Assembly: GCF_024704725.1 (NCBI RefSeq)
Contig: NZ_JALIQS010000001.1
Location: forward strand, 124,001 to 188,000
Length of the DNA: 64,000 nt
Direction of reading: 5' to 3'
Source of the DNA: Shinella sp. CPCC 101442
GTDB lineage: Bacteria; Pseudomonadota; Alphaproteobacteria; Rhizobiales; Rhizobiaceae
The notes beneath the pieces are model-generated. The model did not search any database, had not been told where the DNA came from, and saw only the letters and a list, made by a program, of their open reading frames with translations. Made by a program: the position numbers and the translations under genes. This document shows positions 30,594 through 45,582 of the stretch, piece after piece; position 1 is the first letter of the stretch; the number at the start of each line of letters is the position of its first letter.

Positions 30594-30767
30594 CGCTTGC
30601 GTTCCTGCGGTCGAACGCCACCAGGGTCGTTTCCTCCACACATTTTCACGAACCGACTGGCCGAGTTTCGGAGCGAAAAATCCAATGCCGCCAAAGGCAT
30701 GGTGACCGATGACATTCGCCCACCTTACAAAAGACAAGCGATCATCATCGTTTGTCATTTTCCAATG

Positions 30768-30797
30768 TTGACATTTGTCGACACATAAACGTATTTT
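30768..30797 (+). promoter_or_regulatory. Promoter of the polyol/ketose transport operon
   Basis: TTGACA (30768-30773) and TATTTT (30792-30797) are separated by 18 bp and stand about 50 bp before the ATPase start. The perfect palindrome TGTCGACA (30776-30783) sits in the spacer and could be part of the SorC-DhaK operator. The 309-bp gap 30536-30844 otherwise holds only the antiporter terminator. Confidence 0.55.
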
Positions 30798-30844
30798 GTA
30801 AAAATGCGATGGGAGAGCATCGCCCGAAATGCCGGGAGGAATGC

Positions 30845-32323
30845 ATGCAGCCACTTCTGAAAGTGGAAGGACTGAAAAAGTCCTTTGGCGGCGTTGCCGC
30901 GCTTCGCGACGGCCGCTTCGAGCTGGAAGCCGGCTCGGTGCACGCGCTGTGCGGCGGCAACGGCGCAGGCAAATCGACCTTCCTGTCCATCCTCATGGGT
31001 ATCCACAAGCGCGATGGCGGCACGATCCTGCATCGTGGCAATCCGGTCGAATTCGCCAACCCCGCAGAGGCACTGCGCTCCGGCATCGCCATCATCGAGC
31101 AGGAGCTGAGCCCGGTTCCGCACATGACGGTGGCGGAAAACATCTATCTCGGCCGCGAGCCATCGGCCCGCTTCGGCGGCATCGATTTCAAGACGATGAA
31201 CCGCAATGCGCAGTCGCTGCTCGACCGCCTCGAATTCAGCATTTCCGCCACGCAATACATGATGAACCTCTCGGTCGCGCAGATGCAGCTGGTCGAGATC
31301 GCCAAGGCGCTGAGCCACGAGGCTGACGTCATCTTCATGGACGAGCCGACGTCCGCGATCGGCGAGAAGGAGGCGCAGCACCTCTTTTCGGCCATCCAGC
31401 GCCTGAAGGCCGAGGGCAAGGGCATCGTCTATGTCTCGCACCGCCTCTCGGAGATCTTTCAGATCGCCGACAGCTACACGGTGTTCCGCGACGGCGGCTT
31501 CGTGGGGGCAGGCAAGCTCGCCGATATCGACCGGCCGGGCCTCATCCGCATGATCGTCGGCCGCGATCTCGGCGAAGAATACATCAAGACCAACACGCCG
31601 ACCGAGATCGCCGGCCTCGAAGTCTCGGGCCTGTCTGCACCCGGCAAGATCGACGACATCTCGTTCACGGCCCGCAAGGGCGAGATCTTCGGCATCTATG
31701 GCCTGATGGGCTCGGGCCGCACGGAAATCTTCAACTGCCTCTTCGGCATGGACCGGCCCTCGGCAGGCGACATCCGCCTCGACGGCCAGGCCGTCACGAT
31801 CCGCCAGCCGTCCGACGCCATGGCCGAAGGTATCGCCTTCGTCACCGAGGATCGCAAGGTCACGGGCCTCAACCTGACGGACAGCGTGCGCAACAATATC
31901 TGCCTCGCCAGCCTGCCGGAAATGAGCCCGGCCTTCGTGATGCGCAAGAGCGAGGAGCAGGCCGCCAGCGCCGATATGATCGCCCGCTTCGCCATCAAGG
32001 CCGCGCGCGACACGATGCCGGTCTCCGGCCTTTCGGGCGGCAATCAGCAGAAGGTCGTGCTCGGCAAGTGGTTCCAGCGCCAACCGCGCGTGCTGCTGCT
32101 CGACGAGCCGACCCGCGGCGTCGATGTTGGCGCCAAGCGCGAGATCTACCGCATCATCTGCGACTTCGCCGCCGCCGGCGGTACGGTCGTGATGATCTCC
32201 TCCGAAATCGACGAAATCCTGGGAATGTCCGACCGCATCCTCGTGATGCGGCAGGGACGGTCCGCCGGTATCCATGACCGGCGGCAGACGGATGCCCAGT
32301 CCCTCGTGCATCTGTCGACCTGA
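30845..32323 (+). CDS. Sugar ABC transporter ATP-binding protein, RbsA/MglA type
   Basis: A 492-aa duplicated ABC ATPase. The N-terminal half has an intact Walker A (GGNGAGKSTFLS), a weak signature LSVAQMQLVEIAKAL and Walker B IFMDEPTSAIGEKE. The C-terminal half has the degenerate GLMGSGRTEIF instead of Walker A but a good signature (LSGGNQQKVVLGKW) and Walker B (LLLDEPTRGVDVGAK), the normal pattern for RbsA. GGGAGGA precedes the ATG. It is the first gene of the operon with permease, binding protein, SDR, DhaK and DhaL, so the cargo is probably a polyol or ketose destined for phosphorylation by the Dha-type kinase. Confidence 0.93.
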   Translation: MQPLLKVEGLKKSFGGVAALRDGRFELEAGSVHALCGGNGAGKSTFLSILMGIHKRDGGTILHRGNPVEFANPAEALRSGIAIIEQELSPVPHMTVAENIYLGREPSARFGGIDFKTMNRNAQSLLDRLEFSISATQYMMNLSVAQMQLVEIAKALSHEADVIFMDEPTSAIGEKEAQHLFSAIQRLKAEGKGIVYVSHRLSEIFQIADSYTVFRDGGFVGAGKLADIDRPGLIRMIVGRDLGEEYIKTNTPTEIAGLEVSGLSAPGKIDDISFTARKGEIFGIYGLMGSGRTEIFNCLFGMDRPSAGDIRLDGQAVTIRQPSDAMAEGIAFVTEDRKVTGLNLTDSVRNNICLASLPEMSPAFVMRKSEEQAASADMIARFAIKAARDTMPVSGLSGGNQQKVVLGKWFQRQPRVLLLDEPTRGVDVGAKREIYRIICDFAAAGGTVVMISSEIDEILGMSDRILVMRQGRSAGIHDRRQTDAQSLVHLST

Positions 32324-32377
32324 CGGAAACGAGACCCCGAGCGACGCATCGACCCAAGCATGGCAAGAGGTGACACC

Positions 32378-33382
32378 GTGTCCAGTGCAGAAAACAACAC
32401 CGCCAGCAGCTGGCTGAATTCCGACCGCCGCAGGCTGATCCTGCAGGAATACGGCATCTTCTTCGCCTTTCTGCTGCTCGTCGGCGTCCTCGCGCTGTCG
32501 AACGAGTTCTTCCTGACGCCGGGCAATATTTCCAACGTCCTGCTGCAGACGTCCATCAACGGCGTTCTCGCCATCGGCATGACCTTCGTCATTCTGACGC
32601 GCGGCATCGACCTGTCGGTCGGCTCGGTCGTGGCGCTGGCCGGCATGGTGAGCGCGAGCTTCGTCACGAGTTCGGCGACCGCCGGCATTGCCGGCGCGCC
32701 CTATCCGATGGTCGTGGCGCTCGCCGTCGGCATCCTCGTCGGCGTCGCTTGCGGCGCGCTGGTCGGCTTCATCGTCTCGCGCTTCTCGGTGCCGGCCTTC
32801 GTTGCGACGCTCGGCATGCTGTCGGCCGCCCGCGGCGCCACGCTGATCTATGGCGGCGGCAAGCCGGTGCCGGGCCTCAGCCCCGAGTTCCGCTGGATCG
32901 GCACGGGCAACATTCTCGGCATTCCGATGCCGGTCATCCTGCTCGCGCTGGTCTTCGGCGTCTCCTGGTGGGTGCTCACCCGCACGCGCTTCGGCCGCTA
33001 CATCTATGCCGTTGGCGGCAACCCGCATGCGGCCAAGACCTCGGGCCTCAACGTCACCCGCATCCGCTTCATGGTCTATGTCATCTCGGGCGCTCTATCG
33101 GGCCTTGCCGGCATGATCCTGTCGGCCCGCACGGGTTCGGCCCTGCCGCAGGCCGGCATCGCCTACGAACTGGACGCCATCGCGGCGGTCGTCATCGGCG
33201 GCACCAGCCTTTCGGGCGGCGTCGGCCGGGTGACGGGAACGCTGATCGGCGCGCTCATCATCGGCGTCATGAACAACGGCCTCGATCTCATGGGCATCCA
33301 GTCCTACTACCAGCAGGTCCTCAAGGGTGCCCTCATCGTCGGTGCCGTCATGCTCGACCAGAAGCGAAATCAGGGCCTCTAG
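32378..33382 (+). CDS. Sugar ABC transporter permease, RbsC type
   Basis: A 334-aa permease with about ten helices. Hallmarks are SINGVLAIGMTFVILTRGIDLSVGS, SVPAFVATLGMLSAARG and AVGGNPHAAKTSGLNVTRIR, the last being the cytoplasmic loop that touches the ATPase. GTG at 32378 is preferred because AGAGGTGA lies 4 nt upstream; an ATG at 32360 would add six residues without a binding site. It forms a homodimeric channel with the preceding ATPase. Confidence 0.92.
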   Translation: MSSAENNTASSWLNSDRRRLILQEYGIFFAFLLLVGVLALSNEFFLTPGNISNVLLQTSINGVLAIGMTFVILTRGIDLSVGSVVALAGMVSASFVTSSATAGIAGAPYPMVVALAVGILVGVACGALVGFIVSRFSVPAFVATLGMLSAARGATLIYGGGKPVPGLSPEFRWIGTGNILGIPMPVILLALVFGVSWWVLTRTRFGRYIYAVGGNPHAAKTSGLNVTRIRFMVYVISGALSGLAGMILSARTGSALPQAGIAYELDAIAAVVIGGTSLSGGVGRVTGTLIGALIIGVMNNGLDLMGIQSYYQQVLKGALIVGAVMLDQKRNQGL

Positions 33383-33393
33383 CCCGCAGAAAC

Positions 33394-33413
33394 CGGGCGT
33401 CTTCCCACGCCCG
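33394..33413 (+). other. Hairpin between permease and binding-protein genes
   Basis: CGGGCGT and ACGCCCG form a perfect 7-bp stem with loop CTTCCC, 12 bp after the permease stop. No T-run follows. It could act as a processing or stabilising element at the 5' side of the binding-protein message. Confidence 0.45.
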
Positions 33414-33466
33414 TGGACGAACGGCACGCCGGAGGGCGGCCGAAATTCTCAAAGGAGGAGAATGAC

Positions 33467-34453
33467 ATGAAGAAACTGATGATCGCGCTTGCCTCTGCGA
33501 CGGTGCTGCTCGCCTCGTCCGCCATGGCCCAGGAGAAGCTGAAGATCGGCGCGGCACCCTACGGCCTCAACGCGGAATTCATGCAGATCTGGTCCGCAGC
33601 GCTCGAGGAACACCCGGCCGTCAAGAGCGGCGAAGTCGAGCTGACCGTCTTCGACGGACGCTACGACGCGCTGGTCCAGCAAGAACAGTTCAACACGATG
33701 ATCACCCAGAAGTTCAATGCGATCATCTTCGTGCCGATCGACATCGAAGCCGGCGCGACCGCCGTGCAGGCCGCCAGCGACGCCGGCATTCCGGTCGTCG
33801 GTTCCAACACCCGCGTCAATTCCGACCTGCTCGCCTCCTATGTCGGCTCCGACGACACGATCTCCGGCTACATGGAAGCCAAAGCCGTGCTCGACAAGAT
33901 CGGCTGCAAGGGCAATGTCGTGATCATCGAAGGCCCGATCGGCCAGTCCGCACAGATCTCGCGCCTTGAAGGCAACCAGAAGGCGCTTGCCGAGTGCCCT
34001 GATGTCAAGGTTCTCGAACAGCAGACCGCCAACTGGTCGCGCGCCGAAGCCCAGACGCTGATGGAAAACTGGCTGACCTCGCATCCCGGCCAGATCAACG
34101 GCGTCATCGGCCAGAACGACGAAATGGCGCTCGGCGCCGTCGAAGCGATCAAGTCCGCCGGCCTGAAGACCGAGGATTTCGCGATCGCCGGCATCGACGG
34201 CATCACGGACGCGCTGACGGCCGTCAAGGAAGGCACGATCACCTCGATCCTGCAGGATGCCCGCGCCCAGGCGCAGGGTGCGCTCGATCTCGCGATCTTC
34301 CACGCCAGGAAGGGTGACTACAAGCCGCAGTCCGACATCTGGGCGCAGTATCCGGACATGCCGTTCAACGACGGCAAGGACAAGGAGTACAATGTTCCGT
34401 GGACGCCGGTCACGGCCGACAACGTCGACAAGCTCCTGGGCATGCGCAAGTAA
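33467..34453 (+). CDS. Sugar/polyol ABC substrate-binding protein
   Basis: A 328-aa periplasmic binding protein of the ribose-binding (Peripla_BP_4) group. Residues 1-20 are a signal peptide, with cleavage likely after SAMA. The mature start EKLKIGAAPYGLNAEFMQIW, then FNAIIFVPIDIEAGATAVQAA and INGVIGQNDEMALGAVEAI follow the fold. AAGGAGGAG precedes the ATG. Hairpins flank the gene on both sides, which often goes with high expression of the binding protein. Ligand unknown; from the linked enzymes, a short polyol, erythrulose or dihydroxyacetone-like sugar. Confidence 0.92.
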   Translation: MKKLMIALASATVLLASSAMAQEKLKIGAAPYGLNAEFMQIWSAALEEHPAVKSGEVELTVFDGRYDALVQQEQFNTMITQKFNAIIFVPIDIEAGATAVQAASDAGIPVVGSNTRVNSDLLASYVGSDDTISGYMEAKAVLDKIGCKGNVVIIEGPIGQSAQISRLEGNQKALAECPDVKVLEQQTANWSRAEAQTLMENWLTSHPGQINGVIGQNDEMALGAVEAIKSAGLKTEDFAIAGIDGITDALTAVKEGTITSILQDARAQAQGALDLAIFHARKGDYKPQSDIWAQYPDMPFNDGKDKEYNVPWTPVTADNVDKLLGMRK

Positions 34454-34462
34454 CGACCATTC

Positions 34463-34486
34463 GCGGGGCGGTCGATGCCGCCCCGC
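34463..34486 (+). other. Hairpin after the binding-protein gene
   Basis: GCGGGGCGG (34463-34471) and CCGCCCCGC (34478-34486) form a perfect 9-bp GC stem with a 6-nt loop, 9 bp after the stop codon. The following bases are CT-rich but lack a T-run, so partial termination or protection of the upstream message is more likely than full termination. Confidence 0.55.
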
Positions 34487-34513
34487 TCTCCCAACCCTTC
34501 GAAGGCTGAACCG

Positions 34514-35287
34514 ATGACCGACACACCTCCCAAGATCGATCTCAACTTCCCGCTCGACGGCAAGGTCGCGCTCGTCACCGGCGGCGCCTCCGGCATCGGC
34601 GCGGCCGTCGCCGCCGCCTTTGCCGCCAAGGGCGCCAAGGTCGCCGTGCTCGACATCAATGTCGAGGTCGCGAAGGCGAAGGCCGAGGAGCTCGGCGGTT
34701 CGGCAAAGCCCTTCGTCTGCGACGTCTCCAATCCGGCCTCCGTCGAAAAAGCCGTAGCCGATGTGGTCGAAGCCTTCGGCGGCATCGATATCGCGGTCAA
34801 CAGCGCCGGCATCGTGGCCCTTGCGCCAGCCGAAGACCTGACGCTTGCCCAGTGGGACAGGACGATCGACATCAACCTCAAGGGTAGTTTCCTGATCACC
34901 CAGGCCGTCGGCCGCCGCATGATCGCGGCCGGCAAGGGTGGCAAGATCGTCAACCTCGCCTCGCAGGCCGGTACGGTCGCCATCGAGGATCACGTCGCCT
35001 ATTGCGCCTCGAAATTCGGTGTCATCGGCATGTCCAAGACCTTTGCCGCCGAATGGGGCAAACACGGCATCACCGTCAACACGATCTCCCCCACCATCGT
35101 TCTGACCGAACTGGGCAAGCAGGCCTGGGCCGGTGAGAAAGGCGAAGCCGCCAAAAAGCGCATCCCCAACGGCCGTTTCGCCTTCCCGGAAGAGATCGCT
35201 GCCGCCGCCGTGTTCCTGGCCTCGCCGGGCGCCGACATGATCAACGGCGCCGATCTCCTGATCGACGGCGGCTACACCATTCTGTGA
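34514..35287 (+). CDS. Short-chain dehydrogenase, polyol dehydrogenase-like
   Basis: A 257-aa classical SDR. VTGGASGIGAAVAAAFAAKG near residue 20 is the NAD site; NSAGIVALAP, NLASQAGTVA and YCASKFGVIG hold the catalytic Asn, Ser, Tyr and Lys. Position between a polyol/sugar importer and two Dha-type kinase genes suggests it oxidises an imported polyol to the ketose that is then phosphorylated. A similar gene set (SDR plus DhaK-like kinase) degrades threitol in mycobacteria, which makes a tetritol a reasonable guess. The ATG at 34514 follows GAAGG at a slightly long distance. Confidence 0.88.
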   Translation: MTDTPPKIDLNFPLDGKVALVTGGASGIGAAVAAAFAAKGAKVAVLDINVEVAKAKAEELGGSAKPFVCDVSNPASVEKAVADVVEAFGGIDIAVNSAGIVALAPAEDLTLAQWDRTIDINLKGSFLITQAVGRRMIAAGKGGKIVNLASQAGTVAIEDHVAYCASKFGVIGMSKTFAAEWGKHGITVNTISPTIVLTELGKQAWAGEKGEAAKKRIPNGRFAFPEEIAAAAVFLASPGADMINGADLLIDGGYTIL

Positions 35288-35298
35288 GAGGACTTATC

Positions 35299-36291
35299 AT
35301 GCAGCGTTTCATCAACGATCCGGATCTGGTGGTCGAAGACACCGTCAAGGGCTTCGTCAAGGCCCATTCGGACATCGTGCGCCTTGCGGAGAACCCGCGC
35401 GTCGTCGTCGCCAGGGATGCGCCATTCGCCGGCAAGGTCGGTGTGGTGACGGGCGGCGGCTCCGGCCATGAGCCGGCCTTCATTGGCTATACCGGCAAGA
35501 ACATGCTGGATGCGGTCGCCGTCGGCGAACTGTTCTCCTCGCCCACCGCCAAGAGCTTCTACGATGCCATCCGCGAGGCCAATGGCGGCAAGGGCGTCGT
35601 CGTGCTCTACGGCAACTATGCCGGCGACAACATGAACGTGAAGATGGCGACGAAGCTCGCCGCCAAGGACGGCATCGAGATCGCGACCGTCGTCGCCAAT
35701 GACGACGTCTGCTCCGCCCCACCGCAGGAGCGCGAAAAGCGCCGCGGCGTCGCTGGCGAGATATTCATGTGGAAGATGGGCGGCGCAAAGGCCGCGACCG
35801 GCGCCAGCCTCGAAGAGGTTCGCGCCACCGCGCAGAAGGCCATCGACAATTGCCGCTCGATCGGCGTCGGCCTCGGCCCCTGCACGCTGCCGGCCGTCGG
35901 GCATCCGAACTTCCAGATCGAGCCCGGCACGATGGAGGTCGGAATCGGCCATCACGGCGAACCGGGCGTGCGCGTCGAAAAGCTGAAGACGGCCGAAGAG
36001 GTCGCCAAGGACATGGTGAAGATCGTGCTCGACGATCACAACCTGCCCGAGGGCACCGAGGTCGCGGTCCTCGTCTCCGGCCTGGGCGCGACGCCGCTCA
36101 ACGAACTCTACATCCTCAACGACACGATCGAGAGCGAGATTTCGGCCCGTGGCCTGAAAATCCGCAAGACCTGGATCGGCAACTATTTCACCTCGCTGGA
36201 AATGGTCGGCGCGACGCTGACCGTCATGGCGCTCGACGACGAACTGAAGACGCTGCTCGAGGTCGAGACGCGTTGCACGATGATCCTGTAA
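35299..36291 (+). CDS. dhaK: Dihydroxyacetone kinase subunit DhaK
   Basis: The 330-aa substrate-binding subunit of a Dha-type kinase. The general acid-base His is H57 in GGGSGHEPAFIG, Asp D110 is in YGNYAGDNMN, and H219 in GHHGEPGV is the His that binds the ketone covalently; all three align with E. coli DhaK H56, D109 and H218. GAGAGGA lies 6 nt before the ATG at 35299. It is followed 13 bp later by dhaL. Substrate may be dihydroxyacetone, erythrulose or another ketose. Confidence 0.93.
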   Translation: MQRFINDPDLVVEDTVKGFVKAHSDIVRLAENPRVVVARDAPFAGKVGVVTGGGSGHEPAFIGYTGKNMLDAVAVGELFSSPTAKSFYDAIREANGGKGVVVLYGNYAGDNMNVKMATKLAAKDGIEIATVVANDDVCSAPPQEREKRRGVAGEIFMWKMGGAKAATGASLEEVRATAQKAIDNCRSIGVGLGPCTLPAVGHPNFQIEPGTMEVGIGHHGEPGVRVEKLKTAEEVAKDMVKIVLDDHNLPEGTEVAVLVSGLGATPLNELYILNDTIESEISARGLKIRKTWIGNYFTSLEMVGATLTVMALDDELKTLLEVETRCTMIL

Positions 36292-36304
36292 CGGAGGAAG
36301 ACAC

Positions 36305-36946
36305 ATGCAGACCTTCGACAATGCCTCCTCAGGTGCCATCGTGCTGTCGATGGCCGAACGGATCGTCGAGAACCGCGCCTATCTCAGCGAGATCGACGGC
36401 AAGATCGGCGACGGCGACCACGGCGTGAACATGGCCAAGGGTTTCGCCATGGCCGCCGAGCGCCTGAAGGGCAAGGACGCTTCGCTTTCTGAATCCCTCG
36501 ACACGCTCGGCACCGTACTGATGACGGAAATCGGCGGTTCGATGGGCCCGCTCTACGGCGTCATGTTCACGGAATTCGCCGAGACCCTCCAGGGTATCGA
36601 AAAGATCGACGCGGCCACCTACAGCAGGATGCTGCATGCCGGCCTGGCGGGCATCCAGTCGATCGGTTCGGCGAAGGTCGGGGACAAGACGCTGATCGAC
36701 GCTCTCGCGCCCGCCGTCGAGGCCTTCGACACGACGACGGCGGCTAATAAGTCGTTCGGCGAAGCACTTGAAGCGCTTGTCGCCGCCGCGGAAGCCGGCC
36801 GCGACTCGACAATCAACCTCGTTGCCAAGATCGGCCGTGCGAGCCGCCTCGGCGAACGTTCGCTCGGTGTGCTGGATGCGGGCGCCACCTCCTGCGCCAT
36901 CATTCTCAAGGAACTGTCCGGCGGCGCGCGCGAACGCCTCGCCTGA
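36305..36946 (+). CDS. dhaL: Dihydroxyacetone kinase subunit DhaL
   Basis: The 213-aa nucleotide-binding subunit. The Mg-ADP ligands D31, D36 and D38 lie in EIDGKIGDGDHG; GGSMGPLYG and VGDKTLIDALAP complete the nucleotide barrel, and RASRLGERSLGVLDAGA is the terminal family signature. In PTS-type systems DhaM rephosphorylates bound ADP, but no dhaM is present here, so either a distant DhaM serves it or it uses ATP directly. GGAGG precedes the ATG. A strong terminator follows the gene. Confidence 0.93.
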   Translation: MQTFDNASSGAIVLSMAERIVENRAYLSEIDGKIGDGDHGVNMAKGFAMAAERLKGKDASLSESLDTLGTVLMTEIGGSMGPLYGVMFTEFAETLQGIEKIDAATYSRMLHAGLAGIQSIGSAKVGDKTLIDALAPAVEAFDTTTAANKSFGEALEALVAAAEAGRDSTINLVAKIGRASRLGERSLGVLDAGATSCAIILKELSGGARERLA

Positions 36947-36971
36947 GACAGACGAAAAGTTCCTCCCAGGA

Positions 36972-37013
36972 TGCGCGGCCTGTCCTTCGTGACGGGTCGC
37001 GCACCGCTTTTTT
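36972..37013 (+). terminator. Rho-independent terminator after the first dhaL
   Basis: The segments at 36972-36984 and 36991-37003 pair over 13 bp (two G-U pairs) around loop CTTCGT, followed by TTTTTT at 37008-37013. It separates the transport/kinase operon from the SorC-DhaK fusion gene, whose start lies only 70 bp downstream. Confidence 0.8.
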
Positions 37014-37082
37014 GCCGTGGCATGTTGCAAACCGGCGGCGTTGCTTTCATCTTCGCCGCCTGATGGGGGACCGGCGAAACCG

Positions 37083-39200
37083 ATGGTATTGAAGACTTCC
37101 GCACCGCGCAAGGGCGGCCCCGGCCGGGGCACCGGGCCTGAGGGCATCGACACGATCCCGCTACGCTATGGCGATGACCCCTATGTCTGGGCCTGCTGGC
37201 TCTATTACGAAGACGGCATGACGCAGGGCGAGATCGCCTCGGCGATGGGCGTCTCGCGCGCCACCGTCAACAGCTACCTCGCCGATGCCCGCGAAAAGGG
37301 CATCGTCAACATCTCCATCGAGCCCGCCCGCCTCGCCTCTCTCACCATCGCGCAGGAACTGAAGCGCCATTTCGGCCTCGCCGACTGCCTCGTCGTGCCA
37401 AACGGCGACGATTCACGTCCACTGATCGGCCGGCTGGGCGCTGCCGGCGCGCAGGCGCTTTCCAAGATGATCAAGTCCGGCGACACGCTCGCCGTCGCCT
37501 GGGGCCGCACGATCCTTTCGGTCGGCGAACATCTCGAAATGGGCTCCCTGCAGGACGTCACCGTCGTACAGGCGACCGGTGGCACCACCGCGAGCTTCGC
37601 CTACACGCCGGAACTGACCACCGCCGCCGTTGCGCGTGCCATCTCCGCGCGCTGCGTCAACATCACCGCACCCGCCGTCGTCGCCTCCGCGCAGATGCAC
37701 GACATGCTGCTGGCCGAGCCGCTGATCCGCGAGCAGTTCGATACGCTCGCGCGTGCCAACCGCATCGTCTTCGGCATCTCGTCGCTGCGCCCCAATTCGA
37801 CGATCCACACCAGCGGCTTCTTCGAATCCGTACCCCTGCAGCACTATCTCGCCAAGGGCGCCGCCGGCGTGCTCGCCGGCCGCTTCATCGACGAACGTGG
37901 CCGTCCCGTCGCCGGTCCACTCGACGACCGCACCATCGGCATCTCGCTCGAAATGCTGCGCGGCATCGGCACGCGCGTCGCCGTGGCCGGCGGCTTCGAC
38001 AAGGTACCGGCCCTCCTCGCCGCCCTGCGCGGCGGCTATGTCAATGTGCTTGTAACGGATGCGGCAACAGGCGCCGGCATTCTCCGCGCCGATGGCGTCA
38101 CCAGTCTCGACGGCAAGCTTTCGCAACGCCAGAAAAGCACGCCGGTCGCCAACAGCTATCGCAGCCATGTCAAGAAATTCCTCAACAATCCCAATGATGT
38201 AGTCGAAGAGATGCTGGACGGCCTGATCGCCGCGCACAGGCCTTACCTCCAGCCGATCGGCACCTCCCACCGCGCCCTCGTCGCCCGCAACGGCCCGCGC
38301 CCCGGCAAGGTCGGCCTCGTCATCGGCGGCGGCACGGGACATGAACCCTGCTTCGTCGGGTATGTCGGCAAGGGGCTTGCCGATGCGGTGGCGCTCGGCA
38401 ACATTTTCTCCTCCCCCCCGCCCGACCCGATCGTGAAATGCGCCGTGGCGGCCTCCGGTGGTGCGGGCGTACTGTTCGTCTACGGCAACTATGCCGGCGA
38501 CGTAATGAATTTCGAGATGGCCGCAGAGCTTGCCGAGGAACGGGGCATCCCGATCCGCACGGTTCTGACCACCGATGACATCGCCTCCTCGCCCGTCGAG
38601 GACAAGGAGGGACGACGCGGCGTTGCCGGAAATTTCTTCGTCTTCAAGGTGGCGGGTGCTGCCTGCGATCTCGGCATGACGCTTGGCGAATGCGAGGCCG
38701 TCACCCGCAAGGCGAACGACCGTACCTATACGGTCGGGGTCGCGCTCGAATCCTGCTCCATGCCGCAGACACGGCGGCACAACTTCGAAATCGGCCCCGA
38801 TGACATGGAACTCGGCATGGGCATCCATGGCGAGCCCGGCGTATCGCGCGAGCGCGTGCGCACCGCCGACGAGATTGTCGATGCGATCATGGACAACATC
38901 TTCAAGGAGATGAAGGCCGAGCCCGGCGACAAGGTGGCGGTTCTCGTCAACTCCTTCGGCGCCACGCCGTTGATGGAGCTCTACATCCTCTACCGCCGGG
39001 TAGAGCAGCGGCTCGCCGCCAAGAACATCCAAATCGAGGCGAACTGGGTGGGGCACTACTGCACTTCGCTCGACATGGTCGGCGCCTCCATCTCGATCCT
39101 GCATCTCGACCGTCAGCTGACCGGGCTTTTGCACCATCCGTGCCGGACGGCGATCCTGACCATCCATGCGCCTGAAGCGGACGAAGCGGCAAAGGGCTGA
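37083..39200 (+). CDS. SorC-type transcriptional regulator fused to DhaK
   Basis: A 705-aa two-part protein in one uninterrupted frame. Residues about 35-75 hold a helix-turn-helix (MTQGEIASAMGVSRATVNSY); about 85-340 is a SorC/DeoR-type sugar-binding domain (SGDTLAVAWGRTI, FGISSL, GVLAGRFIDERG, VAVAGGFDKVPAL). A linker near 345-360 leads to a full DhaK domain, about 361-690, that keeps all catalytic positions: H420 in GGGTGHEPC, D473 in GNYAGDVMN and H582 in GIHGEPGV. ATG at 37083 is preferred over 37017. It lies behind a terminator and 28 bp before a second dhaL. It probably senses the ketose directly and controls the upstream operon. Databases name similar fusions bifunctional regulator/DhaK. 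Confidence 0.93.
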   Translation: MVLKTSAPRKGGPGRGTGPEGIDTIPLRYGDDPYVWACWLYYEDGMTQGEIASAMGVSRATVNSYLADAREKGIVNISIEPARLASLTIAQELKRHFGLADCLVVPNGDDSRPLIGRLGAAGAQALSKMIKSGDTLAVAWGRTILSVGEHLEMGSLQDVTVVQATGGTTASFAYTPELTTAAVARAISARCVNITAPAVVASAQMHDMLLAEPLIREQFDTLARANRIVFGISSLRPNSTIHTSGFFESVPLQHYLAKGAAGVLAGRFIDERGRPVAGPLDDRTIGISLEMLRGIGTRVAVAGGFDKVPALLAALRGGYVNVLVTDAATGAGILRADGVTSLDGKLSQRQKSTPVANSYRSHVKKFLNNPNDVVEEMLDGLIAAHRPYLQPIGTSHRALVARNGPRPGKVGLVIGGGTGHEPCFVGYVGKGLADAVALGNIFSSPPPDPIVKCAVAASGGAGVLFVYGNYAGDVMNFEMAAELAEERGIPIRTVLTTDDIASSPVEDKEGRRGVAGNFFVFKVAGAACDLGMTLGECEAVTRKANDRTYTVGVALESCSMPQTRRHNFEIGPDDMELGMGIHGEPGVSRERVRTADEIVDAIMDNIFKEMKAEPGDKVAVLVNSFGATPLMELYILYRRVEQRLAAKNIQIEANWVGHYCTSLDMVGASISILHLDRQLTGLLHHPCRTAILTIHAPEADEAAKG

Positions 39201-39228
39201 GGCCGCTTGTGCCCTAGGGGAGGAAGAC

Positions 39229-39864
39229 ATGTCGGAAACTGCCGCACGGGTGCTTGCCCGGATGTTCGAACGGATGTCCAGGGTGATCGAAACGGAAAAG
39301 GACCGCCTTTCCGAACTCGACGGCGCCATCGGCGACGGCGACCATGGCATCACCATGTCGATCGGCTTCAAGGCGGTGACGGCGGCACTGGCCGCGCTTG
39401 ATCTTGAAAGTGCAAGCCCTTCCGACGTGATGTCGACGGCGGCAAGCGGCTTCCTCGACGCCGTCGGCGCCTCCACCGGCCCGCTCTATGCAACAGGCTT
39501 TCGCCGCGCCGGGCAGGCGCTTGCGGGCTGCGACCAGCTCGATCTTGCGGCCTGCCGAGACATGCTCAGCGCGATTTCCGAGGGCATCCGCGACCGCGGC
39601 AAGGCGCAGCGCGGCGACAAGACGATGCTCGACGTCTGGCTGCCCGCCGCGGAGGCTGCCGCGACAGCCGTTGCCGCTCACCGCCAGAAACCCGAATTCT
39701 GGAAGGCCGTGGAAGCCGCCGCAGAGAACGGCGCTGCCGCCACCGCCACCATGGTTGCCACCAAGGGCCGCGCCGCCCGCCTGCGCGAACGCTCGCTCGG
39801 CCATACCGACCCGGGCGCCGCCTCCGCCGCCATGCTGATCAAGGCGATGGCTGCGACGCTCTAG
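39229..39864 (+). CDS. dhaL: Second DhaL subunit
   Basis: A 211-aa DhaL paralogue of the gene at 36305. The Mg ligands D31, D36 and D38 are kept in ELDGAIGDGDHG, with GASTGPLYATGF, RGDKTMLDVWLP and the terminal RERSLGHTDPGAASAAM. GGGGAGGA precedes the ATG, 28 bp after the SorC-DhaK stop, so this DhaL is probably the partner of the fused DhaK domain. Its TAG stop lies within the CTAG at which the decayed IS481 element begins; the length is still normal, so the insertion did not truncate it noticeably. Confidence 0.92.
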   Translation: MSETAARVLARMFERMSRVIETEKDRLSELDGAIGDGDHGITMSIGFKAVTAALAALDLESASPSDVMSTAASGFLDAVGASTGPLYATGFRRAGQALAGCDQLDLAACRDMLSAISEGIRDRGKAQRGDKTMLDVWLPAAEAAATAVAAHRQKPEFWKAVEAAAENGAAATATMVATKGRAARLRERSLGHTDPGAASAAMLIKAMAATL

Positions 39865-41033: not shown

Positions 41034-41918
41034 TCACGCGGGGCAGACCGTGATGCGCATGGAGACACTCAGGCTTTCGGCCGGTTCCAGCACCCTGAGC
41101 CCATGGTCCTGCGGTTCACCGGGCAGGTTGAAAGCATCCACGGGATGCGTCACCGGCTCGAAGCAGATGAAATCCGCATCCGCGGCAGGGGAAAAGACGA
41201 CGTACCGGTTCAGCGGCTCGCTCGTCTCGATATCCGCCGCCAGGCCCTTCCCCGGCCAGGCGATCCGCGCCTTGCCGTTCCAGCCGTCGAACCAGTTGTT
41301 GATCCACCGGGCCGGGAGAAGCCGGGGCCGGTTGAAATCCATGTCCGGATGCATGCCAACGGGCTCGCGGCCCTTCGAAAGATGATCGGCCTGCTCCAGC
41401 CAGACGTCCGTAGCCGCGGCGGCAAGCGTCGTATCCGCATCGCGCACGAACCAGGGATGGAAGCCTGCGCCGTAAGGTAGCCGGATGGCTGCGCGGTTGG
41501 TGACGTCGAGCGTCATGACGAGCCCGGCATCGACGAGACGATACGTCGCGGTCGCATCAAAACGGAATGGCCCCGGCCCCTCGGCCGCGAGCGCCAGGCT
41601 TATGAAATCCCCTCCCTCCGCTGCCACGCGCCATGGAGATGAAAAACCGCTGCCGTGGAGGGGATAGGCCTCTGTGTCCATGTTGCGGGACAATGCGTGG
41701 AAGTCGCCATTGAAGGAGAAGCCACCGCCGGAAACACGTCCGGAAAAGGGCACGAGCAAGATGTTGGATAGGGCAAAGGGATGAGCCGTCCCGGGATCGA
41801 CTGCCCGAAAGATCGGCTGCCAGTCCGCCCCATGCAACACGTCGAACGCCGCCAACCCGGCGCCGAGATCAGGCCGCACGGTGATGCGCGCCCTGCCGTT
41901 GGAAAGCGAAACCGTCAT
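41034..41918 (-). CDS. Aldose 1-epimerase family protein
   Basis: A 294-aa cytosolic mutarotase-like protein with the galactose mutarotase beta-sandwich. Visible elements are LSNGRARITVRPDLGAGLAA at the start, LHGSGFSSPWRV with the substrate-binding His, YGAGFHPWFVRD with the catalytic-type His, and FICFEPVTHPVDAFN with a late Glu. It interconverts alpha and beta anomers of an imported sugar. Its start touches the stop of the SDR gene upstream (shared base 41918), so it is the last gene of the long minus-strand sugar operon. Confidence 0.88.
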   Translation of the reverse strand: MTVSLSNGRARITVRPDLGAGLAAFDVLHGADWQPIFRAVDPGTAHPFALSNILLVPFSGRVSGGGFSFNGDFHALSRNMDTEAYPLHGSGFSSPWRVAAEGGDFISLALAAEGPGPFRFDATATYRLVDAGLVMTLDVTNRAAIRLPYGAGFHPWFVRDADTTLAAAATDVWLEQADHLSKGREPVGMHPDMDFNRPRLLPARWINNWFDGWNGKARIAWPGKGLAADIETSEPLNRYVVFSPAADADFICFEPVTHPVDAFNLPGEPQDHGLRVLEPAESLSVSMRITVCPA

Positions 41919-42673
41919 TACCAGCCGCCATCAACGGCTATGTTCTGGCCGGAGATCATGTCGGATGCCGGCGAGACGAGGAAATGCACCAGTTCCGCAA
42001 CGTCCTCCGGCTGGATACGTGCCTTCAGCGACTGGTTTTCGAGAATCCAGTCGTTGTAGGCCTGCAGCCGGTCGGCAAAGACACGCGCCTCCGCCTCCGA
42101 CACCACCGCGCCGGGGGAGACCGCATTGACGCGCACGCCATGCGGGCCGAGTTCGCGCGCAAGCGACTTCGTCAGCCCCAGCATCGCGCCCTTGGAAGCG
42201 ACATAGGGCACATATCCGTCCCAGCGACCGTTCAGCGTTACCGAGCAGAAATTGACGATCTTGCCGTAACCCCTGCCCTTCATGGCCGGCGCGACGGCGC
42301 GGGCCAGCGCGAAGGCGGCGGAGGAGTTGACGCGGACCTGATCCTCGTATTCCTCGAGCGAGAACGCCTCGAAGGGCTTGTTGATGATGAGCGCGGCGTT
42401 GTTAATGAGGATATCGATGCCGCCGTGCTCGCGCGCGAGCACGAACACACGCCTTTCCGCAGCGGCGAGGTCGTTCAGGTCCTCGCCGATATAGACTGCC
42501 TTACCGGTGTACGCCCGGGCCGTTTCGGCAGCGAATTCCTCGCCGCCGCCGGTGTCCGGACGGTCGAGCAGCAGCAGGCTCGCCCCGGCACGCGCAAGCC
42601 GGTTTGCCTGGGCGCGGCCGAGCGTGCCGAGCGCGCCGGTGAGAAGGACGGTCTTTCCTGTCAGCTCTGTCAT
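41918..42673 (-). CDS. Short-chain dehydrogenase in the acid-sugar cluster
   Basis: A 251-aa classical SDR: LLTGALGTLGRAQANRLARAG at about residues 10-30, NNAALIINKPF, FCSVTLNGRWDGYV and YVASKGAML hold cofactor and catalytic residues, and SGQNIAVDGGW ends the protein. By context it oxidises an aldose or a deoxy-ketoacid intermediate (in L-fucose and L-rhamnose diketo pathways an SDR acts on the 2-keto-3-deoxy acid). It lies 7 bp after the ATPase gene and overlaps the epimerase by 1 nt. Confidence 0.88.
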   Translation of the reverse strand: MTELTGKTVLLTGALGTLGRAQANRLARAGASLLLLDRPDTGGGEEFAAETARAYTGKAVYIGEDLNDLAAAERRVFVLAREHGGIDILINNAALIINKPFEAFSLEEYEDQVRVNSSAAFALARAVAPAMKGRGYGKIVNFCSVTLNGRWDGYVPYVASKGAMLGLTKSLARELGPHGVRVNAVSPGAVVSEAEARVFADRLQAYNDWILENQSLKARIQPEDVAELVHFLVSPASDMISGQNIAVDGGW

Positions 42674-42680
42674 TGTCTCC

Positions 42681-43412
42681 TCACAGAAGCGCGTGAACCT
42701 CGTCGATGGAGGTTTCGGACGTGGGCTTGTCGAACACGATCTCGCCGCGGGCCATGGCTACGATCCGGTCGCAGGACTGGAAGACATGCTGCATGTTGTG
42801 CGAGATGAAGATACCGGTCAGCCCCTGTGCCTTCAGGCCCCGCACGAAACCGATGACCTTGTCGGTCTCCTTGACGGAGAGATGGTTGGTCGGCTCGTCA
42901 AGGATCAGCACCTTGGACTTGAAATGCATGGCACGCGCGATTGCGACACCCTGCCGCTGACCGCCGGAAAGCTCACCGACGAGTGCATCCGGCGAACGCA
43001 GGTGCAGATCGACATCGGCGATGGCCTGCACGCTTTCGGCGCGCATGCGCTTCTGGTCCATGATGCCGATGCCGAAGAGCGACCATTTCATCGGCTCGCG
43101 ACCGATGAAGAGATTTCGGGCGATCGACATGGTAGGCACCATGGAATTGTACTGGTAGATCGTCTCCAGCCCATGACGCATCGCGTCCTTGGGGCTGCGC
43201 AGTTCGACCTTCCTGCCTTCGATCAGCACCTCGCCGGAATCCTGATGGTGGACACCGGAGAGGATCTTGATGAGCGTCGATTTGCCCGCCCCATTGTCGC
43301 CCACCAACCCGACGGTCTCGCCGGGATGGATGGTGAGGTTGACGCTCTTCAGCGCGTGCACGCCGCTGTACCATTTCTGCAGGTTGCGGCATTCGATGAC
43401 CGGCGTCGTCAC
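42681..43412 (-). CDS. Sugar ABC transporter ATP-binding protein, single-domain (FrcA-like)
   Basis: A 243-aa ABC ATPase with one domain rather than the duplicated RbsA type. Walker A is GDNGAGKSTLIKILSG, the signature LSGGQRQGVAIARAM, and Walker B LILDEPTNHLSVKE. The GTG start at 43412 overlaps the permease stop (GTGA). It is a close paralogue of the ATPase at 50106 (compare IETIYQY and ETIYQYNS, FIGREP, DEPTNHLSVKET), so the two transporters probably arose by duplication. Confidence 0.92.
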   Translation of the reverse strand: MTTPVIECRNLQKWYSGVHALKSVNLTIHPGETVGLVGDNGAGKSTLIKILSGVHHQDSGEVLIEGRKVELRSPKDAMRHGLETIYQYNSMVPTMSIARNLFIGREPMKWSLFGIGIMDQKRMRAESVQAIADVDLHLRSPDALVGELSGGQRQGVAIARAMHFKSKVLILDEPTNHLSVKETDKVIGFVRGLKAQGLTGIFISHNMQHVFQSCDRIVAMARGEIVFDKPTSETSIDEVHALL

Positions 43413-44392
43413 TTGTGCGCCTCCACCTTGATCTTGCGGGAAAGCTTGCCCATCCAGGCATTGGCGATGACAGCGAACATGGTGAGCACGCCGATGGCGA
43501 ACTTGAACCAGTTGGCATCGACGCGCGAGAGAACCAGACCATTGTCGATCGTGCGGATCAGCAGCGTGCCGATGATCGCGCCGAAGACCGTGCCTATGCC
43601 GCCCGCCAGCGCCGTGCCGCCGATGACCGCGGCCGCGACCGCCTGCAGCTCCAGCCCCTCGCCGATGGAGGGGAGCGGCGAACCGAGACGCAGCACCTGC
43701 AAGAGGCCGGCGAACCCCGCCAGCACGGAGCAGAGCATGAAGCAGGCGATCTTGACGCGCTTGACGGGGATGCCCATCGAGGCGGCCGCCTCGTTGAAGC
43801 CGCCGGCTGCACGGATCCAGTTGCCGAAATTGGTGAGCGACAGCATGGCCCCGACCAGCGCCGCAATGCCGACGAACCAGACGAAGGACATACGGAACAG
43901 CGCGCCCTGCCAGATATAGTCCGTGAAGAGCCAGGTCGGCAGGTCGGAGGGTAGCAACGGCGGGAAGCCGCCGGAGATGACGATGGTCAGCGAACGCGCG
44001 ATGAACAGCATGCCGAGCGTGGTGATGAAGCTCGGGATCGCGAATTGCAACGTGACATAGCCGTTGATGAAGCCGATCACCGCGCAGACCAGAAGCCCCA
44101 GCAGAACCGCGCCCGTGAAGGGTACTCCGCCGTTCAGCATCACGGCCATAGACATCGGCATCAGCGCGAAGACCGACCCGACCGACAGATCGAACTCGCC
44201 GCAGATCATCAGGATCGTCACGCCGATGGCGACGAGCGCCATTTCCGGCAGCAAGCCCATGACGCCGCGCACGTTCTCGAAGGAGAGCAGGATGCCGTTC
44301 GACTTCACCTGGAAAACGGCCAGGAGAACGATCAGCAGAGCGAGGCCGGCGAGTTCCGGCTTGTCGAGATAGATTTTCAGAAACCGCTTCAT
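43409..44392 (-). CDS. Sugar ABC transporter permease (FrcC/RbsC-like)
   Basis: A 327-aa permease with about nine helices. EMALVAIGVTILMICGEFDLSVGS near residue 50, IPSFITTLGMLFIARS and RAAGGFNEAAASMGIPVKRVK (ATPase-contact loop) are typical. The ATG at 44392 starts with MKRFLKIYLDKPELAG; the frame open to 44491 overlaps a hairpin and is rejected. It is a paralogue of the permease at 50865, sharing GEFDLSVGSVFxL and GGFPP. It overlaps the ATPase gene by 4 nt. Confidence 0.92.
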   Translation of the reverse strand: MKRFLKIYLDKPELAGLALLIVLLAVFQVKSNGILLSFENVRGVMGLLPEMALVAIGVTILMICGEFDLSVGSVFALMPMSMAVMLNGGVPFTGAVLLGLLVCAVIGFINGYVTLQFAIPSFITTLGMLFIARSLTIVISGGFPPLLPSDLPTWLFTDYIWQGALFRMSFVWFVGIAALVGAMLSLTNFGNWIRAAGGFNEAAASMGIPVKRVKIACFMLCSVLAGFAGLLQVLRLGSPLPSIGEGLELQAVAAAVIGGTALAGGIGTVFGAIIGTLLIRTIDNGLVLSRVDANWFKFAIGVLTMFAVIANAWMGKLSRKIKVEAHK

Positions 44393-44410
44393 GAACCGCC
44401 ACTTATGGTT

Positions 44411-44440
44411 CGGCGTCTCGCCTTCCGGGACAAGACGCCG
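44411..44440 (-). other. Hairpin between binding-protein and permease genes
   Basis: CGGCGTCT (44411-44418) and AGACGCCG (44433-44440) form a perfect 8-bp stem around a 14-nt loop, in the 70-bp gap after the binding-protein stop. It lacks a T-run and probably protects the upstream message. Confidence 0.5.
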
Positions 44441-44462
44441 GTTGCGTGTCGGGTGCGCCGGA

Positions 44463-45437
44463 TCAGCGCAGGCCCTGCTTTGCCATTTCAAGAATGATCG
44501 GAACGTCTTTCGGCGTAACGATGCCCTGCCCGGTGTCGATGTCGGAGGGCGTCAACCCGGCCGTCTTCCACAGATAGGCCTGCATGACGGGCATGAAGCC
44601 CTGCATGTAGGGCTGCTGGTCGACCTGCACCTGCACATAGCCAGCCTCCATCTGCTGGAGCACTTCCGGCACGAGATCGAAACCGCCGAGCAGAACCTTG
44701 CCGGGCTCGATGCCCCTATCCTTCAGCACCTTGGCGACGCCAGCGTGCCAGTAGCCCGTATCGAAATAGGCCGTCGTGTTGGGGTTGGCATTGAGATATG
44801 CACCGATACGGTCGGCGGTCAGCGCAAGGTCGGTCGCAGAATCGATGCGCGTAATGGTGATCTCGCGATCGGTGTGCGCGGCCTTGTACTCTTCGAGGAA
44901 CTTCATCACACCGCCGGCGCGCTGTTCGGACCAGGTCTGGCCGGGCGCATTCACGCCGACCAGCAGGTTGAGCGGGCCGTCCTTCGGAAAGTTCTCCGAC
45001 TGCGCTTTGGCGAGCGAATAGCCGGCTGCGGTAAAGCCCTGGCCGATGAAGGCTTTACGGGCATTGCCCTTGGCGCCTTCGCTGTCATCGACATTGACGG
45101 CGAGAACGAGGATGCCGGCATCGACCGCTTCCTGGATCACATTGTCATAGGCCTTGTTGTCGACGATCGCGACAAAGATCGCATCCGGCTTGGAAGCAAT
45201 CGCCGCCTGAAGGTTGGCGACGGCCTGTTCGACGGCTCCTTCCGTCTGCGTGAGGATCAGCTGGCATGAGGCACCGACCTTCTCGCAGGCATCGTCATAG
45301 CCCTTTTTGACCGACTGCCAGAAGGTGTTGGAAGCGGACGAGTGGCTGATGAAGGCGATGTTGAGCCCTTCGGCGCTGGCGCCGGAAGCCATGAATGCCA
45401 GCCCGAGGGCTGTTCCCGTTATCAATTTTCGGATCAT
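44463..45437 (-). CDS. Sugar ABC substrate-binding protein
   Basis: A 324-aa periplasmic binding protein, Peripla_BP_4 type. The signal peptide spans residues 1-21, with cleavage likely after GASA. The mature start GLNIAFISHSSASNTFWQSV followed by KGYDDACEKVGASCQLILTQ, with two Cys that may form a disulfide, parallels the binding protein at 51897 (SFWQSIKRGMDDACAQF..CQLIF). GGGAGG precedes the ATG at 45437. Perfect hairpins lie on both sides. The ligand is probably a sugar or sugar acid used by the adjacent dehydratases. Confidence 0.92.
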   Translation of the reverse strand: MIRKLITGTALGLAFMASGASAEGLNIAFISHSSASNTFWQSVKKGYDDACEKVGASCQLILTQTEGAVEQAVANLQAAIASKPDAIFVAIVDNKAYDNVIQEAVDAGILVLAVNVDDSEGAKGNARKAFIGQGFTAAGYSLAKAQSENFPKDGPLNLLVGVNAPGQTWSEQRAGGVMKFLEEYKAAHTDREITITRIDSATDLALTADRIGAYLNANPNTTAYFDTGYWHAGVAKVLKDRGIEPGKVLLGGFDLVPEVLQQMEAGYVQVQVDQQPYMQGFMPVMQAYLWKTAGLTPSDIDTGQGIVTPKDVPIILEMAKQGLR

Positions 45438-45505
45438 GATGCGTACCTCCCGTTGAACATCGATCGTTGTGTCCGGCGCTCCTTCACGCCGTCGCGGAAC
45501 TCCAC

Positions 45506-45525
45506 CCGGGACCTTGCAGTCCCGG
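45506..45525 (-). other. Hairpin upstream of the binding-protein gene
   Basis: CCGGGAC and GTCCCGG form a perfect 7-bp stem with a 6-nt loop in the 145-bp gap between the dehydratase and binding-protein genes. No T-run is present. The gap holds nothing else recognisable. Confidence 0.45.
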
Positions 45526-45582
45526 CAATCTTCAGAAAATCGCGCAGATGCCGTCCGCGCGCAGGCAAGACACCCGAAGGCC

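What the first reader, a model, noticed from the sequence alone, without database searches (positions are those of the whole stretch)
37083..39200. Transcription regulator fused to a catalytically complete DhaK kinase subunit
One frame joins a SorC-type HTH and sugar-binding domain to a full DhaK domain that retains H420, D473 and H582, the three positions needed to bind and activate a ketone. In E. coli the DhaK and DhaL subunits act as separate co-regulators of DhaR. Here sensor, regulator and kinase subunit are one molecule, so substrate bound covalently in the DhaK half, or its exchange with the adjacent DhaL, could directly switch DNA binding. Databases label such fusions as bifunctional, but I know of no worked mechanism.
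Basis: partly seen in the sequence, partly recalled or inferred. Interest (0 to 1): 0.8.

Follow-up and report, generated by a model that had tools for sequence, protein, structure and literature searches.

The report
Operon repressor fused to ketose kinase
One protein joins a DNA-binding sugar sensor to a seemingly intact sugar-kinase subunit, and comparison of many bacteria suggests that it switches its own sugar-use operon while also taking part in that pathway's chemistry.

Summary
Window 37083-39200 is one frame (705 aa): HTH, SorC effector domain, disordered linker, full DhaK domain with H420, D473, H582. The architecture is already named by NCBI and found in many Alphaproteobacteria; my searches listed no study of it.

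New here: (1) the triad is invariant in 230 of 230 distinct fusions; (2) a DhaL gene of the same type lies beside the fusion in 78 of 78 distinct loci, one relative fuses all three parts, and in one of 12 genomes examined the fusion is the only DhaK, so the DhaK half is probably a working kinase subunit; (3) a probable operator, TTGACAWWTGTCRA, occurs exactly once in the 6.1-Mb genome, over the -35 of the operon promoter at 30768; relatives have it within 1 mismatch in 53 of 78 loci, 44 of them with a weaker copy exactly 21 bp away. None lies at 37.0 kb.

Best reading: autoregulating repressor-kinase of a tetrulose or DHA operon. I favour induction by a ketose phosphate in the SorC half; direct switching through the DhaK half is untested, not excluded.

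The parts
30768..30781 (+). candidate operator palindrome TTGACATTTGTCGA, overlapping a TTGACA -35 (TATTTT at 30792 as possible -10)
   Evidence: exact pattern once in 6.1 Mb own genome; conserved upstream of the operon in congeners and other families; promoter elements read by eye
30725..30802 (+). wider regulatory region with further GACA/TGTC half-sites (TTACAAAAGACA 30725, TTTGTCATTTTC 30751, TTTTGTAAA 30794)
   Evidence: alignment of congeneric upstream regions; 21-bp spacing peak in relatives; the half-sites are degenerate in the window itself
30845..32323 (+). RbsA-like sugar ABC transporter ATPase
   Evidence: NCBIfam/Pfam
32360..33382 (+). RbsC-like permease
33461..34453 (+). periplasmic sugar-binding protein
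34511..35287 (+). GolD/DthD family polyol dehydrogenase
   Evidence: NF005309 409.3 bits over cut-off 286
35302..36291 (+). separate DhaK (second kinase set)
   Evidence: PF02733
36305..36946 (+). separate DhaL (second kinase set)
   Evidence: TIGR02365 175.0 over 138.3
37083..38090 (+). SorC half of the fusion: HTH + effector-binding domain (about residues 1-336)
38091..38171 (+). linker, residues about 337-363, variable length in relatives, low model confidence
38172..39200 (+). DhaK half with H420, D473, H582
39229..39864 (+). DhaL partner, Asp triad D31/D36/D38
   Evidence: TIGR02365 188.2 over 138.3

Best explanation
The protein is a bifunctional repressor-kinase of its own operon. Inferred mechanism: the SorC half forms a tetramer that sits on a tandem palindrome (TTGACAWWTGTCRA, half-operators 21 bp apart) over the -35 of the promoter at 30.77 kb and blocks transcription of transporter, dehydrogenase, DhaK, DhaL, the fusion and its DhaL. 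When a polyol such as threitol enters and the GolD/DthD dehydrogenase makes its ketose (erythrulose, or DHA from glycerol), the DhaK half traps the ketose on H582 and, with a DhaL carrying ATP, phosphorylates it. The ketose phosphate binds the SorC effector domain and releases the DNA. The flexible linker fits tethering better than a rigid lever. Shown: the fusion, residue conservation, DhaL linkage, the operator candidate and its rarity. Inferred: repression, tetramer, substrate, catalysis, effector.
For: Catalytic triad 230 of 230 distinct fusions; SorC K307 and D326 also 230 of 230. A DhaL of the fused partner's type lies next to the fusion in 78 of 78 distinct loci. Of 12 genomes with the fusion or its unfused pair searched for Dak1, G373 (about 40 contigs, 100% complete) has the fusion as its only Dak1 domain. 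P0132 is a 943-aa SorC-DhaK-DhaL protein. Operator: exact once in the own genome, at this promoter; TTGACAWWTGTCAA within 1 mismatch in 53 of 78 loci, vs 3, 0, 0 loci in three Markov-resampled sets; 52 of 57 such sites lie within 450 bp upstream of a gene of the operon's kinds, and 44 of the 53 loci have a copy within 4 mismatches exactly 21 bp away, against a mean of 0.4 loci for other spacings of 15-40 bp. In the genus the exact site is in 11 of 15 genomes with the fusion and 0 of 6 without. No DhaM found in the own genome (0 matches at E<=1), so ATP is the likely donor. In 5 loci (L067, L068, L070, L072, L126) the site lies between the operon and a divergent RpiB-type isomerase, fitting a tetrulose phosphate pathway.
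Against: No binding, kinase or expression data. 25 of 78 loci lack a site within 1 mismatch and 10 of 78 within 2. 70 of 78 loci also hold a separate DhaK of the other type, and 10 of the 12 genomes have 2-5 Dak1 domains, so the fused DhaK need not be the main kinase there; the remaining one of the 12, G127, has a single but unfused DhaK. The DhaK half scores under the curated dhaK1 equivalog cut-off (376.8 vs 406.25). The Lys that aligns with the covalent effector Lys of DeoR (position recalled) is Thr165 here, so effector chemistry differs. RpiB was found in only 12 of 79 loci and not in the window. Four of 20 relatives outside the genus have the exact site without a fusion, and site presence within the genus is partly trivial because it belongs to the operon. 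Loci are related, so counts are not independent.
Confidence: 0.5

Rival explanations
1. One reading: free ketose bound covalently in the DhaK half, or docking of DhaL on it, directly changes DNA binding of the SorC half, as DhaK/DhaL do for DhaR in E. coli and DhaQ for DhaS in Lactococcus (details recalled).
For: Covalent fusion with an invariant ketone-binding His in 230 of 230; DhaL adjacent in 78 of 78; precedent: 'E. [quoted passage not shown]
Against: Linker stretch 24-36 residues, variable, pLDDT under 50 at 348-363, pTM 0.51: no sign of a fixed interface. SorC effector domains are sensors on their own in the family. Unfused SorC proteins of the same clade exist (L046, L047, L079, L103, L084).
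Confidence: 0.22
2. The fused DhaK is only a sensor or passenger; the separate DhaK/DhaL at 35302-36946 does the catalysis.
For: 70 of 78 fusion loci carry that second DhaK.
Against: Each fusion keeps its own DhaL (78 of 78); 4 loci (L075, L080, L148, L152) have no other DhaK within the fetched flanks (L152 keeps two DhaL genes), G373 none in the genome; triple fusion P0132.
Confidence: 0.13
3. The fusion only ensures co-expression of regulator and kinase; the halves work independently with no signal passing between them, and the effector is any ketose phosphate in the cell.
For: Flexible variable linker; unfused pair SorC + DhaK in G127/L084 with a palindrome at the SorC start; DhaKs of the same clade without a detected SorC in L085-L094.
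Against: The fusion is kept in 9 family groups of the order (22 of 397 genomes) while gene order around it is reshuffled, which suggests that one chain matters.
Confidence: 0.3
4. The SorC half is an activator or binds elsewhere; the conserved palindrome belongs to another regulator.
For: Site absent within 2 mismatches in 10 of 78 fusion loci; four genomes without the fusion also have the sequence (G026, G030, G031, G035); in minimal loci the copies have 3 mismatches, a level reached by chance elsewhere, and L148 has none within 2.
Against: Site overlaps the -35; resembles the DeoR half-operator TTGAACAAAATTCAA (sequence in NAR 2024); in L080, where the fusion is the only SorC gene detected, two 3-mismatch copies lie exactly 21 bp apart just upstream of it.
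Confidence: 0.15

Closest known systems
NCBI-named proteins 'bifunctional sugar-binding transcriptional regulator/dihydroxyacetone kinase subunit DhaK'
   Same: Same architecture; the 120 listed relatives are 71-92% identical. The window protein is a member.
   Different: Only a name given by a source; no partner, operator or mechanism attached in anything I found.
SorC/DeoR family repressors (DeoR B. subtilis, LsrR and SorC of enterics)
   Same: HTH plus phosphosugar-type effector domain; palindromic two-part operator over the promoter (DeoR).
   Different: The solved relatives end after the effector domain; the covalent Lys of DeoR is Thr165 here (Lys position recalled).
E. coli DhaKL-DhaR and L. 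lactis DhaQ-DhaS
   Same: A DhaK-type ketone-binding protein informs transcription of a kinase operon.
   Different: There DhaK/DhaQ are separate proteins acting on an enhancer-binding or TetR-type regulator (recalled); here DhaK is in one chain with a SorC regulator that has its own sensor.
Tetritol catabolic kinases (D-/L-erythrulose kinases of Mycolicibacterium)
   Same: DAK-type kinase with DthD-type dehydrogenase and, in some loci, an RpiB-type isomerase (family details recalled; pathway outline in PMC12780249 passages).
   Different: Not fused to a regulator (recalled); substrate not proven here.

Membership tests
SorC family (SorC/DeoR subfamily) | C-terminal sugar-bind effector domain PF04198 | tested here: met
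   1.7e-59, residues 86-334
SorC family (SorC/DeoR subfamily) | short homeodomain-like HTH rather than CggR winged HTH | tested here: met
   helices within residues 33-71; aligns from the HTH on with LsrR, DeoR, SorC, but with CggR only from residue 86
SorC family (SorC/DeoR subfamily) | tetramer on a two-part operator | tested here: inconclusive
   tandem sites with 21-bp spacing in 44 of 53 loci; oligomer not testable
SorC family (SorC/DeoR subfamily) | phosphosugar effector | not testable with these tools
   conserved GG-x-D/E-K and D326 only
DhaK (Dak1) | Dak1 domain with the three catalytic/substrate residues | tested here: met
   PF02733 3.8e-116; 230 of 230
dhaK1 equivalog TIGR02363 | curated score cut-off | tested here: not met
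   376.8 vs 406.25 bits
PTS-type DHA kinase | DhaM phosphodonor in the genome | tested here: not met
   TIGR02364: 0 matches at E<=1; control E. coli rings
DhaQ (TIGR02362) | curated score cut-off | tested here: not met
   198.4 vs 413.25
ATP-type DHA/ketose kinase | DhaL partner with Asp triad | tested here: met
   TIGR02365 188.2 over 138.3; D31 55/55, D36 55/55, D38 53/55 rows of this DhaL type, query included, some from loci without fusion
ATP-type DHA/ketose kinase | catalytic activity with ATP | not testable with these tools
   no assay

The most novel reading that the evidence does not exclude
A one-chain flux sensor: the same DhaK site that traps and phosphorylates the ketose reports its occupancy or DhaL docking to the tethered SorC tetramer, or hands its product to it locally, so that the operon promoter reads flux through the enzyme rather than a metabolite pool.
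Probability: 0.2. Interest if true: 0.8.

Novelty: new variant of a known kind. Interest (0 to 1): 0.55.

Why it matters
Enzymes that regulate genes usually do so as separate partners or by moonlighting. Here a metabolic kinase subunit and a repressor with its own sensor have been kept in one chain across several families of Alphaproteobacteria. With an operator candidate, a DhaL partner and a genome where the fusion is the only DhaK, the coupling between catalysis and repression can now be tested with simple in vitro work.

Tried and rejected
Artefact or frameshift: rejected (78 distinct loci open across the linker). Uniqueness: rejected. A site directly before the fusion (36947-37082): none with up to 3 mismatches. 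Single origin of the fusion: the DhaK tree nests separate DhaKs among fusions, but one clade of 33 fused rows is not rejected (AU p 0.488, tree of 67 rows, 8 of the 75 left out); gain versus loss stays open. AlphaFold: good domains, no inter-domain answer; no fold search was run because both domains are clear by sequence. A paper search for S. meliloti locus tags recalled from memory found nothing. The substrate could not be settled between erythrulose and DHA.

Controls and limits: the shuffles are first-order Markov resamplings, three sets. Searches used the symmetrical pattern TTGACAWWTGTCAA, the pattern ending in RA. The 78 loci are those of 86 taken in which both domains lay in one frame (L145, L149, L154 dropped: cut at contig ends), less 5 duplicates; the window itself, the short loci L107 and L108, and the unfused L084 are not counted among them. 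The 230 are distinct out of 249 before removal of duplicates; one (L097) is cut at its N-terminus. One search counted any DhaL within 250 bp; one search repeated it for the fused partner's type alone (78 of 78, domain-to-domain gap under 400 bp).

Full report
The observation. Window 37083-39200 encodes one 705-residue protein without internal stop. Pfam gives HTH matches around residues 40-75, the SorC-type sugar-binding domain at 86-334 and a full Dak1 domain at 380-690. By sequence the N-terminal half is nearest among solved structures to LsrR, DeoR and SorC, and the C-terminal half to E. coli DhaK. H420, D473 and H582 sit in the expected motifs. The downstream DhaL (39229-39864) is over its curated cut-off.

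The operon. From 30845 to 39864 on the + strand: RbsA-like ATPase, permease, binding protein, GolD/DthD-family dehydrogenase, DhaK, DhaL, the fusion, DhaL. So there are two kinase sets, one with its DhaK fused to the regulator. The own genome has five Dak1 domains and no DhaM at E<=1, so ATP-dependent kinases are likely. Three genomes of the same genus group carry fusions identical to those of named Shinella records (L053, L054, L057 = L110, L111, L109), so the genus is very probably Shinella.

How common. The 120 listed hits of a protein search carry both PF04198 and PF02733 (676 hits in all, 120 seen), and so do the 120 listed with a distant fusion as query (813 in all). Many carry NCBI's name 'bifunctional sugar-binding transcriptional regulator/dihydroxyacetone kinase subunit DhaK'. 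Near full-length matches were found in 15 of 21 genomes of the genus and in G023, that is 16 of 41; in 22 of 397 genomes of the order, with G334 split over two contigs and G127 unfused (E<=1e-130); in 1 of 385 genomes drawn from the class, the own one, and in 5 of 398 drawn from the phylum. Among the 79 named loci kept of 586 or more, fusions occur in Rhizobiaceae, Brucellaceae, Phyllobacteriaceae, Aurantimonadaceae, Labrys, Rhodobium and two Roseobacteraceae (Salipiger, Tropicimonas). The architecture is known by name and seems bound to Alphaproteobacteria.

Is the DhaK half a working kinase subunit? Four results say probably. The triad is invariant in 230 of 230 distinct fusions. A DhaL gene of the fused partner's type lies beside the fusion on the same strand in 78 of 78 distinct loci, upstream or downstream. 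One relative, P0132 (1 of 171 proteins held), is a single 943-aa SorC-DhaK-DhaL protein. And of 12 genomes that I chose for a Dak1 search, G373, rated 100% complete, has the fusion as its only Dak1 domain. Against: 10 of those 12 have 2-5 Dak1 domains (G127, the last, has one unfused), and 70 of 78 loci have the second type of DhaK, so in most hosts the fused one could be subsidiary. Four loci have a separate DhaK of the fused type and four no other DhaK in the fetched flanks (L075, L080, L148, L152).

What does it regulate? Aligned upstream regions of the operon in congeners show conserved blocks around TTACAAAtGACA, TTTGTC and TTGACATwTGTCG. The core TTGACAWWTGTCRA occurs exactly once in the 6.1-Mb genome, at 30768; other places in the window need 3 mismatches, no more than chance (16 matches found, 12.5 expected). 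Over 78 distinct fusion loci, 53 have the symmetrical form within 1 mismatch and 68 within 2, against 3, 0, 0 and 5, 9, 9 in resampled sets. 52 of the 57 sites within 1 mismatch lie within 450 bp upstream of a transporter, dehydrogenase, kinase or fusion gene; 44 of the 53 loci have a second copy within 4 mismatches exactly 21 bp away, against a mean of 0.4 loci for other spacings of 15-40 bp. L067, L068 and L069 have two near-perfect copies 21 bp apart. In the window itself the neighbouring copies are degenerate. Among 21 genomes of the genus, the exact site is in 11 of 15 with the fusion and 0 of 6 without; ten of the eleven lie at the fusion operon by coordinates and the eleventh (G018) at the other end of the same contig, as expected if that replicon is circular (circularity inferred). 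Four of 20 other relatives carry the sequence without a fusion, so the site alone is not proof. In loci where the fusion is the only SorC gene detected, weaker copies lie just upstream of it (L080 two copies 21 bp apart, L075 one, 3 mismatches each), a level that single sites reach by chance; L148 has none within 2. The site overlaps a TTGACA -35, as the DeoR operator overlaps its promoter (NAR 2024, passages), which points to repression. There is no copy in front of the fusion gene.

What is the signal? The effector domains of this family are phosphosugar-binding domains, and DHAP releases CggR from DNA. GG-x-D/E-K and D326 are conserved in the fusions. In five loci the operator lies between the operon and a divergent RpiB-type isomerase, which fits erythrulose 4-phosphate better than DHAP; but RpiB was found in only 12 of 79 loci, and the window has none (the genome's single PF02502 match is at C1:247757). 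I therefore favour a ketose phosphate, tetrulose type, as inducer, with moderate confidence.

Evolution. In the DhaK tree all 33 fused DhaKs fall in one group with 15 separate DhaKs (L084-L094, L059, L128, L131, L133); one fused clade is not rejected (p 0.488). SorC halves form one clade with a few unfused SorC proteins (L046, L047, L079, L103, L084). L084 (G127) has SorC and DhaK as adjacent separate genes, the DhaK start preceded by GGGAGG. Whether this is an ancestor-like state or a fission is open.

Literature. Searches for SorC with dihydroxyacetone kinase and fusion, for the NCBI name, and for kinase with sugar-binding domain and Rhizobium listed no title on the fusion; the library lacks most subscription journals. 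Only passages of PMC11229326, PMC12780249, PMC6643234 and PMC10733421 were seen. DhaQ/DhaS, the roles of DhaK and DhaL on DhaR, residue functions of E. coli DhaK and the DeoR lysine are recalled.

Verdict. Real, conserved, named but mechanistically unstudied in anything I could find: a repressor-kinase that most likely controls its own operon. The operator, the DhaL linkage and the sole-DhaK genome are the new, testable points; direct allostery from the kinase half remains a hypothesis.

Noticed in passing
P0132: A 943-aa protein fusing SorC, DhaK and DhaL in one chain, 1 of 171 proteins held.
   Followed up: partly
L084:7419-9507 (G127): SorC and DhaK of the same types as adjacent, separate genes, with the palindrome at the SorC start.
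   Followed up: partly
L046:449-1504, L047:313-1350, L103:8277-9497: Stand-alone SorC proteins 43-44% identical to the fused half, with 2-mismatch palindromes near their starts (L046, L047) or in the locus (L103); probably a sister regulator of other transporters.
   Followed up: no
L085-L094: DhaK genes 60-63% identical to the fused DhaK half with DhaL and no SorC domain detected nearby.
   Followed up: partly
G000:C8 (L100:8099-11184): A DhaK-DhaL fusion next to a convergent SorC gene in the same genome; a second SorC/DAK pairing.
   Followed up: no
G000:C1:657187-657200 (L106): The only other place in the genome within 1 mismatch of the operator pattern; no RpiB match there, genes not examined.
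   Followed up: partly
window 41034-46791: Minus-strand sugar cluster: aldose 1-epimerase, SDR, sugar ABC transporter, enolase-superfamily protein; seems separate from the operon studied.
   Followed up: no
L059:5876-10822: G023 operon with a separate fused-type DhaK, one DhaL and the fusion, i.e. two DhaKs for one DhaL, plus a PfkB-type kinase.
   Followed up: no
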